Positions 8,735 to 15,266 of a DNA stretch of 45,652 nt are shown one piece after another. The notes beneath the pieces are model-generated. The model had not been told where the DNA came from. It saw nothing but the letters and a program-made list of their open reading frames with translations, and searched no databases. The position numbers and the translations under genes are program-made. The first letter of the stretch is position 1. Each line of letters opens with the position of its first letter. This DNA comes from an uncultured Synechococcus sp. (GTDB lineage Bacteria > Cyanobacteriota > Cyanobacteriia > PCC-6307 > Cyanobiaceae), in NCBI GenBank assembly GCA_913048995.1, contig CAJWXK010000003.1, positions 1 through 45,652 of the forward strand, in the 5' to 3' direction.

Positions 8735-9868
8735 ATGGCAGTGGGCGTTCCCAGTTCGTTGAACTTTCTGGTGGTTGGTGGTGGCCTTGGTGGTGCGCTG
8801 CTGGCGCTGCATTTGGCAGAAGCCGGCGCCCAGGTGGAGCTGGCCGGCGGACCAATGTCGGCTGGCGCAACTGGTTGGAGCTACGGCGGAGTGCCCTGGT
8901 GGGGTGTGGGCAGTGATGAGCTCGGACAGCTGTTGGCCACTGCCCCTTCCCATTGGCACGCTTTGCAAGATCGCTGTGGTGATTTAGGTGTCAACAGCTG
9001 CAATCTCTGGCTGCATTGGTCTGAGCTCGATTCCTCCGCTGCTGTGGCAGCTGCTCGAGCTGCTTTAGACGCGTTACCGCAGCAACCGCGGCTTGAACAT
9101 CTCAGCGCTGAAGACCTATGGAGCGCTGAACCACTCTGTCAAGGAGCTGCGCTGGGCGGAGCCATACAGATGCCCTACTTGAGAGTGGATCCTGATGGCT
9201 TTCAGCGCGGGATCGATCAAGCCTTGCAGCGCTTGGGCGTGACTCGGTTGCCACCGCTTGATGCGGCATCACTGAGCCAACGGCTCGAGTATGTCGATGC
9301 AGCTGTGCTCTGCGCAGGTGCCTTGTCGGCGCCTCTGCTGCAGCAACTTGATCTGCCCCGGCCATCAGTGTTGCGCTTTAGCTGGGCTGGCGTCCTTCAA
9401 ATCGAGCGCCTGCAGCTGACGAGCAAGACAATCATCATGCCGCTCCTGGGGCAGCGGCGTCAGCGGCAGCTTGCCGATGCCGGCCAGGCACTGGTGCTGG
9501 ATCCCGGCATCTGCCCAGGACCTGGTGGCGGGATCTTGATCGGACAGACCTCATGGTTTGACCAGTCCTTGGAGCATTCACCTGAGCCACAGGCGGAGCA
9601 GCAGCGCTTGATGGCCGCTGGTCAAGGCTTGTTGCCTCAACTCCCCTCTGCAGCTTGTTCAGCGGCAAGGCTTCATCAGCGGCCCGTGGCCTACACCACT
9701 GATCTCTTGCCACTGATGGGTCCGCTTCCGGAGTGCAGCAAGCTTCACCTGTTTACTGGCTTCAGTGTTGCTTTTGTTCAAGCGCCGGTGCTGGCTCCCT
9801 TGATGGCGCAAGCGCTCTTGACGGGTGACTGGAAGCCGCTCAGCTGCTTTGGTTTGCTGAATAGGTGA
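8735..9868 (+). CDS. FAD-dependent oxidoreductase (DAO/glycine oxidase-like)
   Basis: A 377-residue soluble flavoprotein. The N-terminal dinucleotide-binding motif is FLVVGGGLGGALLALHLAEAG (Gly15 onward). Residues around 165-175 (LRVDPDGFQRGIDQAL) match the DAO-family segment that precedes the second FAD contact. The C-terminal part carries RPVAYTTDLLPLMGP and TGFS, the usual FAD/substrate-closing region. The substrate is unknown; an amino-acid or glycine oxidase-like role is only a family-level guess. The last 29 bases overlap the convergent TolC gene. A nearby plus-strand reading at 8731 is a shadow. Confidence 0.85.
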   Translation: MAVGVPSSLNFLVVGGGLGGALLALHLAEAGAQVELAGGPMSAGATGWSYGGVPWWGVGSDELGQLLATAPSHWHALQDRCGDLGVNSCNLWLHWSELDSSAAVAAARAALDALPQQPRLEHLSAEDLWSAEPLCQGAALGGAIQMPYLRVDPDGFQRGIDQALQRLGVTRLPPLDAASLSQRLEYVDAAVLCAGALSAPLLQQLDLPRPSVLRFSWAGVLQIERLQLTSKTIIMPLLGQRRQRQLADAGQALVLDPGICPGPGGGILIGQTSWFDQSLEHSPEPQAEQQRLMAAGQGLLPQLPSAACSAARLHQRPVAYTTDLLPLMGPLPECSKLHLFTGFSVAFVQAPVLAPLMAQALLTGDWKPLSCFGLLNR

Positions 9869-11603
9869 GCGCAGGGGTGAATGGTGCTGCCGGATTACGC
9901 GGGACTGGAAGCAGTTCACGCAGCAGCTGGGCGTAGGTGATGTTGACGTCAACCGTTGCGTCAAGCCGCCGTACCAGGCTGCTGATTAGGCGCTCTTGGG
10001 TGATTGAGAGATCCAATTCACTCGACAACCCTGTCTGATAGCGCAGGCGAACATCGCGGAAGGCCTCCATTGCCGCAGCCACACCGCGCCGCGCTGAGGC
10101 CAGCTTGGCCAGGCTCGCTTCGTGGTTAAAAAACGCACTTTCGAGACGAAGTCGAATCGCATTGCGTCGCGTCGCGTAATCCTGAGCGCTGGCTTGTGAG
10201 CGCTGATCAAGGGCGCGGGCTCGTCCGGCTGTAGTGCCCGCATCAAACAGCAGCCAGGTGATACTGAGTCCCAGGGACCAGTCGTAGCCACTGTTATTGA
10301 ACACCGTGTTGATGGGGCTGCCGCAGCAGCCGCCGTTTTTACCGATGACGTTGTACATCTGCTCGTTGACGCCGTAGGTCCCGGCATTGGCGAATAGTGA
10401 GAGCTTTGGCAGCAGATCGGCGGCTACCGCATCACTGCGTCGCGCCAAAGCATTGCGGGCGGCCAGAATCGCCTCCAGTTCCGGATTGCCTCGGTAGGCC
10501 GCCAGCAGACTGGCTTCCAAATCCAGGGGCCAGGCAGGCATCGGCTCAATTGGATCGGCTGTCGTCACGCTGATTTGTGGATCGACGTTGAGGACCACGC
10601 TGAGGGCACGCCTGGCGATGGCCCGGTCCGCCATGGCCTGGATCAGTGCTTCTTGATCGCTCGCTTCAATGGCGCGGCGGCGCATCACATCAAGGCGTGG
10701 CACTAGACCTGCTCGCTGAAGATCGAGCGTGTCCTGCAGAATCATTAGATCGTTCTGCACCGCGGCATCTTGAATGCGGACGTTCTGATCAGCCTGCTGA
10801 AGTCGGTAATACGCCTCACTGACGTCGAGCTGCAGTCGCCTCAGCTGGTTGGCGTAGAGGCTTCGTTGCTCCTGAAGCTTGGATCGGGACGCTTCCACCC
10901 GTGGAGTTCGCGCAAAATCAAGTAGTGCGTAGTCCAGTTGCAACCCGGCATCGCCAGCATTTTCGACTTGATTGAAGTAGGCGCCGCCACCTGCCGGGGT
11001 ATAGAAGGGGCCATCGGTGGCTTTGCCAGAAGCAGCTCTGAGCCCGTTTTTGGATAGTGCTGGCACCTTGTTCAGGCTGTTGTTGCCTGTGGGGACGTTG
11101 ATGTTGTTGCTGGCCTTGCCGGTGCTGCCCTCGGCGTAAGCGCTGATCTGTGGCCAGTAGGTGCCGAGCGCGGCCTGCAGTTCAGACAGGGCTGCGGCGA
11201 CGCGCAGGCGTTGGCTTTGCAGCCCAGGATTGTTGGCCACAGCAATCTGCAGGGCACGCTTGAGGCTCACCGACTCAATCACTCCGGGTTTGAGCTCAGT
11301 CGCATCGGGCAACTCCAGAGGAGTTGGGGAGCCAGGTTCTGGGCTCAGAGCCGAGCTGGCAGCGGCATTGGGCTTCAGCAGTGACTTGGGGAGAGGTTGC
11401 GCTGGAGCGAAGCGTTCAGTGGTTGGCTCCGGTTCAGCCGGGATTAGCGCGTCAAGGGCGCGGAGCTGGAGGTCCAGTTGGCGCCAGCTCTGCTCCAGTC
11501 GCTGCACGCCCCCATCGATTTCGTCATTCTCAAGCAGCTGCTGAGCCTTGGAGGCTGGCTGATCAACGAAGCTGAGCGCCAGCGCGACGGCTGCCCACCG
11601 CAT
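9840..11603 (-). CDS. TolC-family outer-membrane efflux channel
   Basis: About 587 residues, longer than typical TolC because of a Pro/Ala-rich N-terminal region. A signal peptide (MRWAAVALALSFVD...ASKA) is best read from ATG 11603. A GTG at 11630 would add nine residues, and the track start at 11762 runs into the hlyD 5' end. Two repeated helical hairpin units are visible: LKRALQIAVANNPGLQSQR, and LEASLLAAYRGNPELEAILAAR about 250 residues later. SLGLSITWLLFDAGTTAGRARAL is the OEP signature. It is divergent from the HlyD gene across about 100 bases, and probably supplies the outer-membrane part of the neighbouring exporter. Confidence 0.93.
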   Translation of the reverse strand: MRWAAVALALSFVDQPASKAQQLLENDEIDGGVQRLEQSWRQLDLQLRALDALIPAEPEPTTERFAPAQPLPKSLLKPNAAASSALSPEPGSPTPLELPDATELKPGVIESVSLKRALQIAVANNPGLQSQRLRVAAALSELQAALGTYWPQISAYAEGSTGKASNNINVPTGNNSLNKVPALSKNGLRAASGKATDGPFYTPAGGGAYFNQVENAGDAGLQLDYALLDFARTPRVEASRSKLQEQRSLYANQLRRLQLDVSEAYYRLQQADQNVRIQDAAVQNDLMILQDTLDLQRAGLVPRLDVMRRRAIEASDQEALIQAMADRAIARRALSVVLNVDPQISVTTADPIEPMPAWPLDLEASLLAAYRGNPELEAILAARNALARRSDAVAADLLPKLSLFANAGTYGVNEQMYNVIGKNGGCCGSPINTVFNNSGYDWSLGLSITWLLFDAGTTAGRARALDQRSQASAQDYATRRNAIRLRLESAFFNHEASLAKLASARRGVAAAMEAFRDVRLRYQTGLSSELDLSITQERLISSLVRRLDATVDVNITYAQLLRELLPVPRNPAAPFTPALTYSANQSS

Positions 11604-11703
11604 CAGGCAAAGCCAGCGCTGCTGCAACACTCTGCCTTTGAGAAATCTGGCGCAGTTTGGCCCCACTTGGCTTTTTCTGCCCGGAGTGAGTCGCCGGATC
11701 CCA

Positions 11704-13044
11704 ATGCTGGAGCAGGCCAAATCAAAATTTGTGCAGCGATTCGCCCACCAGCGTGATCGCATCGTTTCGGCCTGGGCCGGATTGAGTGATCACAGCCAGG
11801 TGGGGGTGACGCTGGTGGGAGTGAGTGGTGTGCTCGCTCTTTGGGCCCTGTTCTGGCCAGTGCCAACAGAGGTCAGGGGTCATGGGGTGCTCATCTACCC
11901 CGATAACGCTGGCGTTCTCAATGCCCGCGTTGATGGCCAGGTGCTGAAGGTCAAGACGCAGGTGGGTGATTCAGTCCGTCAGGGTCAGGTATTGATGACC
12001 CTCTATTTGCCTGTTCTTGAGCGTCAGTTGCAGCAGCAACGCGGCAACTTGGCCCAGCTGGAGGTGATCAACGACGATCTCAACCAGCGCGATGCGATGC
12101 GCTTAGGGACCGAAAAGACTGCTCTTGATGTCACCCTCGCCAAGTTGGATGACGACGTACGCCGCTATAGCGCTCTGCAGAACACCTTCTCCGCGAAGCT
12201 CAGCAACCTGGAGTGGCTAAGCCAGCGTCAAGTGGTGGCTCCGCTTTCCCGTGCTGTGGTCTCAGTGCAGCAGGGATTCACTGACACGAGCGTCAACCTT
12301 GATGACGTCAAGATCAATCGCAAGCAGGTCCTCACTGACTATCAGCAGGTGAAGCTGACGATTGAAACCGAGGCCCTCAAGCGTCAGTTCCGCATTGATG
12401 ATCTCCGGCGTCAGATCGCAGTGACAGAAGCACAGATTGAATTTGACGGCACTGTGGTGGCCGGCCGTGATGGCCATGTTCTCGACCTGCAGGTCATCCC
12501 TGGTCAGACGGTGAAACTGCGGGATCGTCTTGGAACCATTGGCAATGTTGCGAACACCACAACTAAGGCGCCGGATCTCAAAGCAGTCGCCTATTACTCA
12601 CCGGCTGATGCTCGCCGTTTGCCTCTTGGCTTGCCGGTGGAAGTCGTGCCGCAGTGGAAGCAGCGGGGCCGTTTTGGCGGCATCGTTGGCAAGGTGAGCA
12701 GCGTGCTCACCTTGCCCTCCACCGAGGAGGATGTGGCGACCACCACTGGGAACCCCGAGCTGGCCAAGGCTCTCACCAAAGACGGCCCGGTGATGCGCGC
12801 AGAGATCGAACTGGAGCGAGATGTCAACAGCCTTGATGGCTACCGCTGGACACTCTCTTGGGGGAGTGGAGTCTTCCCAATCCGTGAAGGCCTGACAGCA
12901 ACCTCCCACGCATATGTTGAATGGCGATCACCGTTGAGTTACGTCATTCCTGGTCTGCGCTCACTGACTGGTGGCTACCGCACGTTGCGGCTGGATCGTC
13001 TCTGGAATCGATCGTTCCTGCAGCAGCCCGACACGATTGAATGA
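11704..13044 (+). CDS. HlyD-family periplasmic adaptor (membrane fusion protein)
   Basis: About 446 residues from ATG 11704; the track start 11638 adds 22 unlikely residues. One N-terminal membrane helix (VGVTLVGVSGVLALWALF) is followed by a split biotinyl-lipoyl domain. Its first half is VDGQVLKVKTQVGDSVRQGQVL and its second half FDGTVVAGRDGHVLDL. A long coiled coil (about 105-245) connects them. A beta-barrel part and a C-terminal segment SPLSYVIPGLRSLTGGYR resemble HlyD proteins of the NHLM/bacteriocin type. No ABC transporter or peptidase is nearby. Instead a small membrane protein follows after four bases, and FUSC transporters and TolC flank it, which points to a proton-driven tripartite exporter. 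Confidence 0.92.
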   Translation: MLEQAKSKFVQRFAHQRDRIVSAWAGLSDHSQVGVTLVGVSGVLALWALFWPVPTEVRGHGVLIYPDNAGVLNARVDGQVLKVKTQVGDSVRQGQVLMTLYLPVLERQLQQQRGNLAQLEVINDDLNQRDAMRLGTEKTALDVTLAKLDDDVRRYSALQNTFSAKLSNLEWLSQRQVVAPLSRAVVSVQQGFTDTSVNLDDVKINRKQVLTDYQQVKLTIETEALKRQFRIDDLRRQIAVTEAQIEFDGTVVAGRDGHVLDLQVIPGQTVKLRDRLGTIGNVANTTTKAPDLKAVAYYSPADARRLPLGLPVEVVPQWKQRGRFGGIVGKVSSVLTLPSTEEDVATTTGNPELAKALTKDGPVMRAEIELERDVNSLDGYRWTLSWGSGVFPIREGLTATSHAYVEWRSPLSYVIPGLRSLTGGYRTLRLDRLWNRSFLQQPDTIE

Positions 13045-13048
13045 ACCC

Positions 13049-13237
13049 ATGGCCCGTCCGCGCCTGATCCGTAATGCACTGCTACGCCGTGAGCTGCCCT
13101 GGCTGGTGGCTGATGTAGTGCTGCTTTTGATTTTGTTCAATGCCAATGCCCCCGAGCTTTGGTTTTGGCTGGTGGTGCTGCTGGTGATCTTGGGCTATCG
13201 CTTTGAACGCTGGTGGTCGTCGCGGCCCCAGGCCTGA
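13049..13237 (+). CDS. 62-residue two-helix membrane protein, AaeX-like position
   Basis: Starts at ATG 13049, four bases after the hlyD stop; the track version from 12971 overlaps hlyD and is rejected. The sequence has a basic N-terminus (MARPRLIRNALLRRE), a helix around WLVADVVLLLILF, a short turn, and a second helix ELWFWLVVLLVILGYRF with a basic end. Tight coupling to hlyD suggests a joint function. In enterobacteria the AaeA (HlyD) and AaeB (FUSC) pair is preceded by the similarly sized membrane protein AaeX (DUF1656). I do not claim homology, only similar size, topology and context. Confidence 0.75.
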   Translation: MARPRLIRNALLRRELPWLVADVVLLLILFNANAPELWFWLVVLLVILGYRFERWWSSRPQA

Positions 13238-13239
13238 AT

Positions 13240-14298
13240 TCAGCTGCCCGCTAGTTGAGTCCATAGACGTTCGGTCTCGATCACTGCTCGGCAGGCCTGT
13301 CGGCAGCGCTGCATTCGGCTTGCCATGCGTTCGAGCTGGATCAACTCCAAGGATTGCAGATCACTGTTGTCGAGTTTCTGGTAAATCAGTTGCCAGCTCT
13401 GCGGCGGTGTGAAGAGCTCATTTGGAGGGGATGCCACAAGCTGCCCCTGCCGGCGCGGTTGCAGCAGATTGAACTTCCACGCCTCTAGTCGTTCGCTGAG
13501 GGCGACAAGCACATCGCGTTCGGCCTTGTGGATTGGTTGCAGGCTTTCCAGATCGGGTCTCACCGGCGGCTGGCGCAGCAGTCCGCAGATGGCAACGGTC
13601 AGCCTTGAAGCCGCATTGATCAGATCTGTGATCAGGACATAGCGTGGATGGCGATTTGAGTTCTCCCCCAGTTCCCGCGCCACATTGGGGAGCTCGGTGC
13701 GCAGCTCGATGATCTGGTTACGGGCAGCGGTCTGGAGTGCTCGGGCCTCCAGTCCGCTAAGCGTTGAACCCTCAAGCGGGGCAAGGGCCTGTTCCAGACC
13801 GTTCTGCAGCTGATCGAGGACTGAGGCGTAATGACTGAATACCTGTTCGCTGCTGCGCATCGGCCAGAACAGCTGTAGGCCCAGCATCGTGATCAGCACA
13901 CCAACAGCCGTCCAGAACAGCCGTAGAGAGATCCACATCGACATGTCGCCGCTATGGATTAGCCAGCCCATCACCACAATCAGGCCGCCGACCTTGTAGC
14001 CCACCTTCAGGCGGAACAGTCCTCCCAGCAGGCGCAGAGATCCCAGGGTGATGGCGATTGCCAGGGTGAAGTGAATCCCGTTCAGCCCCCTGAAGGAGAT
14101 GGAGAGCAGCGCGCCTCCAAGGAGAGTGCCCAGCAGTCGCTGGCGGCCTAGCTCCCAGGCGGCGCCATAGGTCCCGCCACTGCAGGCGAAGACCGCCAAG
14201 GGGACGTAGTACCCAAAGGCCACACCACTGATGACTCCAAAGGCATTGCCCAGACCGGCCATGAAGGCGATCCTGAGCTCGCGGCGCGTGACTAACAC
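13240..14298 (-). CDS. FUSC-family membrane transporter, second half
   Basis: About 352 residues from GTG 14298, which overlaps the upstream stop by 7 bases (GTGTTAG). Five to six N-terminal helices (AFMAGLGNAFGVISGVAFGYY, LLGTLLGGALLSI, WISLRLFWTAVGVLITMLGLQLF) are followed by a long soluble helical domain of about 190 residues. The RLLGTLLGG block is the FUSC/ArAE signature. The track start 14388 lies inside the preceding gene and is rejected. It ends 2 bases from the convergent small membrane gene. Together with its upstream partner it amounts to the length of one full AaeB-type protein. Substrates of FUSC pumps include aromatic acids, but none is shown here. Confidence 0.85.
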   Translation of the reverse strand: MLVTRRELRIAFMAGLGNAFGVISGVAFGYYVPLAVFACSGGTYGAAWELGRQRLLGTLLGGALLSISFRGLNGIHFTLAIAITLGSLRLLGGLFRLKVGYKVGGLIVVMGWLIHSGDMSMWISLRLFWTAVGVLITMLGLQLFWPMRSSEQVFSHYASVLDQLQNGLEQALAPLEGSTLSGLEARALQTAARNQIIELRTELPNVARELGENSNRHPRYVLITDLINAASRLTVAICGLLRQPPVRPDLESLQPIHKAERDVLVALSERLEAWKFNLLQPRRQGQLVASPPNELFTPPQSWQLIYQKLDNSDLQSLELIQLERMASRMQRCRQACRAVIETERLWTQLAGS

Positions 14299-15266
14299 GG
14301 CACACTCCGCGCCAGTGCCCGCACACTGCCATGGAGTGGTTGCTGTTCCTGAGCAACCGCCAGTGTCGTCAGGACCGGCAGGTTGCACTCAGCGGCCATG
14401 GTTCGCCACTGCTCCATCGGAGCTGGAGCTTCTGATGCTTGGCCTTGGCCCAGTTCCTGGTGCATCGCTTTGACACTGCTGCGGATCAGTGGTGATCGCT
14501 GAACCACTGCATCAGGCAGTTCCGAGAGCATCTGCTCCCAGGCGATCCAGTGGAAATGCGTGTGCTGCCAAAGCAACACACGCCTTGACCAGCCGGTACG
14601 TCTCAGTTTTTCGCGCCTGGCTCCGCGGCGCTCTTTGGCGATGATCTGCTCAATGCGTTGCAGCGCGGCTGAGAGGGGGGCCACTGCTAATGGCAACGGT
14701 CGTTCCTGTTGCCCGCTCAACCAGAGGTTGTAACGCTCAAGTTGTTCGGTGAGTCTTCTGCGCAGGTTCTGATCTTCCTGGTGCAGTTCCCCGTAGGCAC
14801 CCCAAGGCCAGAACAGCAGACCGACCAAAATGGCGATGATGCAACCCACCACCGTGTCAAGGCCGCGATTAAACACATAGTTCCAGTCGAGCCGCGTGTA
14901 GTCGGGGATCATCAGGAACATCACGCTGAGTAAGCCTCCGGTGGCCAGTCCACTGGACCAGCCGCAATAACGCAGCACCGGAATCATCACCAGTAGGGAC
15001 AGCAGCACTCCGGGCCAGCCCTGCACGATCGTGTGAACGATGAAGGTGATCACACCTCCCATGGCTGTACCTAAGACGCGGCTGGTGGCTGCCTTCAAGG
15101 TCTGGTCGTCACTGTCATCAGTAACGACCACCACGGCTATCAGTGGATACCAGACAAACTCGACGCGCTCAGTCCACAACGCGATCGCAGCGGTGATGAA
15201 GGCCGCTGTTGCCAGCTTGAGACTGTTGCGGAGCAGCGGAGCCAACAACGGGTCTGCACCAAGCAA
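14292..15266 (-). CDS. FUSC-family membrane transporter, first half
   Basis: A 324-residue protein with a TTG start, the only in-frame start before an upstream stop. About six N-terminal helices (LKLATAAFITAAIAL, YPLIAVVVV, VLGTAMGGVITFIV, GVLLSLLVMIPVL, VVGCIIAILVGLLFWP) are followed by a soluble helical domain with many Arg and Gln. SRVLGTAMGGV matches the FUSC core motif. It overlaps the next FUSC gene by 7 bases, so the two chains are probably made in equal amounts and pair into one transporter. The promoter would lie in 15267-15316. Confidence 0.85.
   Translation of the reverse strand: MLGADPLLAPLLRNSLKLATAAFITAAIALWTERVEFVWYPLIAVVVVTDDSDDQTLKAATSRVLGTAMGGVITFIVHTIVQGWPGVLLSLLVMIPVLRYCGWSSGLATGGLLSVMFLMIPDYTRLDWNYVFNRGLDTVVGCIIAILVGLLFWPWGAYGELHQEDQNLRRRLTEQLERYNLWLSGQQERPLPLAVAPLSAALQRIEQIIAKERRGARREKLRRTGWSRRVLLWQHTHFHWIAWEQMLSELPDAVVQRSPLIRSSVKAMHQELGQGQASEAPAPMEQWRTMAAECNLPVLTTLAVAQEQQPLHGSVRALARSVPC

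What the first reader, a model, noticed from the sequence alone, without database searches (positions are those of the whole stretch)
9840..15266. AaeXAB-TolC-like export locus assembled from TolC, HlyD, a two-helix protein and a split FUSC pump
Five adjacent genes give an outer-membrane channel, a periplasmic adaptor, a 62-residue two-helix protein four bases behind it, and two overlapping FUSC half-transporters (324 + 352 residues). In E. coli the same parts list is AaeX (about 67 residues), AaeA (HlyD) and AaeB (about 655-residue FUSC), using TolC from elsewhere. Here the pump is split in two and TolC is included. The HlyD C-terminus also resembles bacteriocin-type adaptors, so the substrate may differ. 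I know of no described counterpart in marine picocyanobacteria.
Basis: partly seen in the sequence, partly recalled or inferred. Interest (0 to 1): 0.75.

Follow-up and report, generated by a model that had tools for sequence, protein, structure and literature searches.

The report
Cyanobacterial FUSC–HlyD–TolC export pump
Five neighbouring genes in a marine Synechococcus encode one envelope-spanning export pump, related in design to bacterial pumps that expel aromatic acids but with its motor protein in two halves and a previously unclassified small membrane protein; the same pump, in several gene layouts, is found across many cyanobacteria.

Summary
The five genes are real and at the stated coordinates, but not in one operon: TolC (−), HlyD and a 62-aa two-helix protein (+), two overlapping half-size FUSC genes (−). 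Evidence that they form one exporter: FUSC and this HlyD co-occur in 102 of 300 Cyanobiaceae (6 FUSC-only, 4 HlyD-only, 188 neither); the block sits at one fixed genomic address and is missing as a unit there in 16 of 16 non-carriers, two of which keep decayed remnants; in other cyanobacterial families the order is HlyD–small protein–full-length FUSC on one strand. The working comparison with AaeXAB-TolC is therefore good. As membership it fails in parts: the small protein is not AaeX/DUF1656 but an unclassified family (P-[EQR]-[LVM]-WFW) attached to HlyD rather than to FUSC, and the pump is two chains. HlyD passes NCBI's 'NHLP bacteriocin' cut-off, yet its partner here is FUSC; the genome's peptide-type ABC exporter has its own HlyD. 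TolC-with-FUSC pumps and split FUSC pumps have precedents in Proteobacteria. The substrate is unknown; small organic acids are inferred from homologues only. New variant of a known kind; I found no description for cyanobacteria in the held literature.

The parts
9840..11603 (-). TolC-family outer-membrane channel (OEP), 587 aa from ATG 11603; divergent from HlyD
   Evidence: Pfam OEP 1.1e-46; TIGR01844 E=2.7e-27, below its cut-off; PDB sequence hits OprN and TolC; orthologue in nearly every locus mapped
11704..13044 (+). HlyD-family periplasmic adaptor, 446 aa, one N-terminal TM segment
   Evidence: HlyD_3 6.8e-7; TIGR03794 193.7 bits, over cut-off; TM 30-55
13049..13237 (+). Two-TM small protein, 62 aa, unclassified family with motif P-[EQR]-[LVM]-WFW, 4 nt behind HlyD
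   Evidence: Alignments A1 and A5; 147 of 149 family places lie directly 3' of a HlyD on the same strand; no DUF1656 match
13240..14298 (-). FUSC half-transporter B, 352 aa, overlaps FUSC-A by 7 nt
   Evidence: FUSC_2 2.1e-7; profile slightly closer to C-half than N-half of full-length cyanobacterial FUSC
14292..15248 (-). FUSC half-transporter A, 318 aa (open frame to 15266, 324 aa)
   Evidence: FUSC_2 7.5e-12, ArAE_1 7.5e-9; profile closer to N-half of full-length cyanobacterial FUSC; start placed by relatives

Best explanation
The locus encodes one tripartite-plus-one exporter. FUSC-A and FUSC-B, made from overlapping reading frames, assemble into a two-chain inner-membrane pump that does the job of a full-length FUSC protein (AaeB/FuaA type), probably driven by the proton gradient. 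HlyD links the pump to the TolC channel in the outer membrane. The two-helix protein, translated right behind HlyD, sits in the inner membrane and most likely holds the HlyD membrane anchor against the pump. The cargo is most likely a small organic, possibly aromatic, acid or similar toxic metabolite, moved from the cytoplasm or inner membrane straight out of the cell. Shown by sequence: the parts, their families, their co-inheritance and their alternative layouts. Inferred: assembly, energy source, role of the small protein, cargo.
For: Families. Co-occurrence of FUSC-A and this HlyD in 300 Cyanobiaceae: 102 both, 6 FUSC only, 4 HlyD only, 188 neither; 92 of 104 HlyD places have FUSC within 12 kb (most exceptions are on other contigs of fragmented genomes). 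Fixed genomic address over many genera. In 16 of 16 non-carrier genomes the same flanks are there without the cassette, two with HlyD or FUSC remnants only. Elsewhere in cyanobacteria HlyD, small protein and a full-length 716-801 aa FUSC lie together, nearly always on one strand, with TolC divergent beside HlyD in three loci. A third layout in Cyanobiaceae is HlyD-small-single half FUSC of 369-378 aa beside TolC (L166, L167). In several genera FUSC-A, FUSC-B and TolC are in one run on one strand. Energy source by analogy: FuaABC resistance falls with the uncoupler CCCP and each of its parts is needed (PMC3517613).
Against: No experiment. In this window TolC, HlyD-small and FUSC are three transcription units. 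A second HlyD-small-TolC set without FUSC beside it exists in about 40 genomes, so HlyD and the small protein do not strictly need a FUSC neighbour. No aromatic-acid regulator lies next to the locus and no substrate clue was found. Structure predictions were too poor to test the assembly. Co-occurrence counts are not corrected for shared ancestry.
Confidence: 0.8

Rival explanations
1. The HlyD and TolC serve a peptide (NHLP/Nif11 bacteriocin) ABC exporter encoded elsewhere, and the FUSC pair next door is unrelated.
For: HlyD passes the NHLM_micro_HlyD cut-off, as it does in 20 of 20 genomes tested. TIGR03794 was defined together with two ABC transporters (PMC2887384).
Against: The only strong C39-ABC in this genome (contig C95) has its own HlyD directly downstream. 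No NHLM_micro_ABC2 over cut-off in any of 20 carriers and no NHLM_micro_ABC1 over cut-off in this genome. True ABC-HlyD-ABC trios occur in G141, G204, G090 and G245 with their own, distant HlyD. FUSC co-inheritance and HlyD-small-FUSC runs.
Confidence: 0.08
2. HlyD and TolC work with the half-size ABC exporter that lies a few kb away (between DEAD-box and LytR genes) in many relatives.
For: An about 600-aa ABC_membrane/ABC_tran protein is a steady neighbour in other genera.
Against: It stays at the same address in most genomes that have lost HlyD, small protein, FUSC and TolC, and in RCC307 (same genus) the nearest such ABC is about 23 kb from FUSC.
Confidence: 0.04
3. The system is a type I-like exporter of large proteins in which FUSC has an accessory role.
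For: In G018 a gene for a 10,011-aa DUF4347 protein sits between the small gene and FUSC-B, on the strand of HlyD.
Against: One genome only; its relative G137 has no such gene there. FUSC pumps are known for small acids (PMC3517613, PMC7682875). No ATPase in the locus.
Confidence: 0.05

Closest known systems
Bucl8-FusC-FusD-FusE tetrapartite pump (Burkholderia; PMC7682875)
   Same: Same parts list: outer-membrane channel, FUSC pump, about 65-aa small protein, periplasmic adaptor; channel encoded in the locus.
   Different: Single 733-aa FusC in one operon with a divergent LysR regulator; here two FUSC chains, alternating strands, no adjacent regulator found. FusD (67 aa, DUF) was not compared directly by sequence.
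FuaABC of Stenotrophomonas maltophilia (PMC3517613)
   Same: FUSC pump, adaptor and outer-membrane protein form one exporter; all three needed for fusaric acid resistance.
   Different: Single 656-aa pump, no small protein described, AraC-type regulator.
AaeXAB (+TolC) of E. coli
   Same: Small two-helix protein, HlyD adaptor and FUSC pump encoded together. FUSC-A profile aligns with the AaeB N-half (90% probability).
   Different: AaeX is DUF1656 and does not align with the small protein (0.4%); AaeB is one chain of 655 aa; TolC is encoded elsewhere.
MdtNOP of E. coli
   Same: Adaptor, FUSC-type pump and outer-membrane channel in one locus.
   Different: Single-chain MdtO (683 aa); next gene ytcA is a putative lipoprotein that does not align with the small protein.
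NHLM bacteriocin export (TIGR03794/03796/03797; PMC2887384)
   Same: The adaptor matches TIGR03794 above cut-off.
   Different: No ABC partner next to it; the partner here is FUSC.

Membership tests
AaeXAB-TolC | AaeX-type DUF1656 small protein | tested here: not met
   No PF07869 match in the genome nor in any of 14 family members at E<=10; hhalign with AaeX 0.4%
AaeXAB-TolC | HlyD-type adaptor adjacent to small protein and pump | tested here: met
   HlyD_3 6.8e-7; gene order
AaeXAB-TolC | Single-chain FUSC pump of about 655 aa | tested here: not met
   Two chains of 318-324 and 352 aa with a 7-nt overlap
AaeXAB-TolC | LysR-type regulator beside the operon | tested here: not met
   Nearest flanking genes are a DAO oxidoreductase, a 61-aa ORF without Pfam match and DUF308; other places in the genome not searched
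AaeXAB-TolC | Export of aromatic carboxylic acids | not testable with these tools
   Needs growth or transport assays
FUSC tripartite/tetrapartite exporters (FuaABC, Bucl8-FusCDE) | FUSC pump, HlyD adaptor and OEP channel in one inherited unit | tested here: met
FUSC tripartite/tetrapartite exporters (FuaABC, Bucl8-FusCDE) | All parts needed for one export phenotype, proton-driven | not testable with these tools
   Shown for FuaABC only (PMC3517613)
NHLM bacteriocin export | TIGR03794 adaptor above cut-off | tested here: met
   193.7 bits, cut-off 156.2
NHLM bacteriocin export | Partner ABC transporters TIGR03796/TIGR03797 | tested here: not met
   None over cut-off in the genome; nearest homologue has its own HlyD. 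The genome is 82% complete, but complete relatives agree for TIGR03797
NHLM bacteriocin export | NHLP/Nif11 precursor peptides nearby | not tested
   No search for TIGR03793/TIGR03798 was run

The most novel reading that the evidence does not exclude
The WFW small proteins are a new family of adaptor-bound inner-membrane subunits, a general fourth part of cyanobacterial FUSC-HlyD-TolC exporters that fills the AaeX role by convergence; and since HlyD-small-TolC sets also occur with no FUSC beside them, the adaptor-small pair is a portable unit that can be matched with different or shared pumps.
Probability: 0.45. Interest if true: 0.65.

Novelty: new variant of a known kind. Interest (0 to 1): 0.5.

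Why it matters
It would give picocyanobacteria, major primary producers, a defined exit route for small acids or toxic metabolites, and correct an annotation that calls this adaptor a bacteriocin secretion protein. The gene-layout series (full-length FUSC, two halves, one half) offers natural material to test how FUSC pumps assemble and what the small fourth subunit does, a question left open for FusD in Burkholderia (PMC7682875).

Tried and rejected
AlphaFold models of FUSC-A (mean pLDDT 60, membrane part below 50) and HlyD (39) were too poor to use, so no fold search was run. A first profile comparison with four full-length FUSC proteins put both halves on the N-half; with twelve sequences FUSC-A prefers the N-half and FUSC-B, weakly, the C-half, so the first result was dropped. 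A tree of the halves groups FUSC-A with FUSC-B (94/78, not starred, long branches) but does not reject N+A against C+B (p=0.21): gene fission versus duplication of a half-gene stays open. AaeX homology was rejected. Bacteriocin export and the neighbouring ABC were considered and judged unlikely. Literature searches found no description of a cyanobacterial FUSC-HlyD-TolC pump; the library holds open-licence papers only.

Full report
What is there. The window lies in a Synechococcus assembly (1.81 Mb, 82% complete) whose close relatives include RCC307 and the TMED19 MAG. The five genes are present: TolC 9840-11603 (−), HlyD 11704-13044 (+), small protein 13049-13237 (+), FUSC-B 13240-14298 (−), FUSC-A 14292-15266 (−; likely start 15248). 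TolC and HlyD are divergent with about 100 bp between the chosen starts, the small gene starts 4 nt after the HlyD stop, FUSC-A and FUSC-B overlap by 7 nt, an overlap also seen in RCC307 and L011. Pfam and NCBIfam: OEP; HlyD_3 and TIGR03794 (193.7 bits, cut-off 156.2); FUSC_2 in both FUSC chains and ArAE_1 in FUSC-A; only a sub-threshold DUF5993 match in the small protein.

One unit. In 300 Cyanobiaceae genomes FUSC-A is found in 114 and this HlyD or weaker homologues in 131. Taking orthologue-grade places, 102 genomes have both, 6 FUSC only, 4 HlyD only, 188 neither; 92 of 104 HlyD places have a FUSC hit within 12 kb, and most of the rest are on fragmented contigs. Three of the four HlyD-only genomes do carry weak FUSC hits, and the G048 locus holds a diverged FUSC pair beside HlyD. 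Relatedness of genomes is not corrected for, but the layouts and losses below speak to the same point.

Fixed address and joint loss. In loci from many genera the block lies between genes homologous to the window's LipA-, RecR- and PsbP-like genes (these three names from my reading of the sequence) and its LytR- and DEAD-box-like genes (names likewise from my reading), with a DAO oxidoreductase often beside it. In 16 of 16 non-carrier genomes examined the same flanks are found without TolC, small protein and an intact HlyD or FUSC; G264 keeps fragments of HlyD and FUSC-A, G230 fragments of HlyD. The ABC exporter near LytR remains in most of these, so it does not depend on the cassette.

Layouts. 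(1) As in the window: TolC | HlyD-small | FUSC-B FUSC-A. (2) FUSC-A-FUSC-B-(unnamed membrane protein)-TolC-(second FUSC pair) convergent with HlyD-small. (3) In other cyanobacterial families, HlyD, small protein and full-length FUSC (716-801 aa) near each other, nearly always on one strand, TolC divergent beside HlyD in L126, L161 and L162; in L158 and L161 the small gene was located by the genome search between HlyD and FUSC but not drawn in the map, and in L164 it lies on the other strand. (4) In Cyanobiaceae, HlyD-small-single half FUSC (L166, L167). These independent arrangements of the same parts are the strongest evidence for one exporter. FUSC-A profiles match the N-half of the full-length protein best (score 119 against 68), FUSC-B the C-half slightly better than the N-half (94 against 81); a tree could not settle fission versus duplication.

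The small protein. Of 149 family places in Cyanobiaceae 147 lie directly behind a HlyD on the same strand, and 147 of 150 HlyD places have one. This includes about 40 HlyD paralogues (about 50% identical) with no FUSC near them; three such loci were opened and each also has a TolC. The family is therefore tied to HlyD. Invariant residues over distant members are P35, W38, F39, W40. It is not DUF1656. Its role as clamp between adaptor and pump is inference.

Partner of the HlyD. The NHLP bacteriocin name would follow from TIGR03794, but all 20 carriers tested have this hit at the FUSC locus, none has TIGR03797 over cut-off, and true ABC-HlyD-ABC trios in four genomes have their own distant HlyD (tree, with long branches). 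The only strong C39-ABC of this genome (contig C95) has its own HlyD.

Mechanism and comparison. By homology the FUSC pair is the pump, HlyD the bridge, TolC the exit. FuaABC of S. maltophilia shows that such a set works as one pump, needs every part and is sensitive to an uncoupler (PMC3517613); Bucl8-FusCDE in Burkholderia adds a 67-aa fourth protein of unknown role (PMC7682875). The window's system works like these and like AaeXAB-TolC. It differs in the two-chain pump, the unrelated small protein and the gene layout. The substrate is not known. I file it as a new variant of FUSC-type tripartite exporters.

Noticed in passing
G018 contig C4:4957-34992 (L132, L133): A gene for a 10,011-aa protein with an N-terminal DUF4347 domain is inserted between the small gene and FUSC-B, on the HlyD strand; relative G137 lacks it.
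   Followed up: partly
L098, L099, L100 (G176, G134, G023): Second HlyD-small-TolC sets without FUSC, near MutS2, FeoB or hemB genes in L098/L099; their inner-membrane partner is unknown.
   Followed up: partly
L083:11521-12393, L107:6681-7565, also L076, L077, L085, L082: A roughly 240-310-aa multi-span membrane protein without Pfam match lies beside TolC in the four-FUSC layout; its C-terminal part looks to me like an ion-channel pore region with an altered filter.
   Followed up: no
window 11704-13044: The adaptor passes the NCBIfam equivalog TIGR03794, so automatic annotation would call it an NHLP bacteriocin secretion protein; the context argues against that name.
   Followed up: yes
window 8735-9868: A DAO-type FAD oxidoreductase gene is a frequent neighbour at this address, also in some genomes that lack the exporter.
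   Followed up: partly
G000 contig C95 (L001): Rotamase-like protein, a 994-aa cNMP/C39/ABC exporter and its own HlyD in one run, matching group I bacteriocin-type clusters described in PMC3140520.
   Followed up: partly
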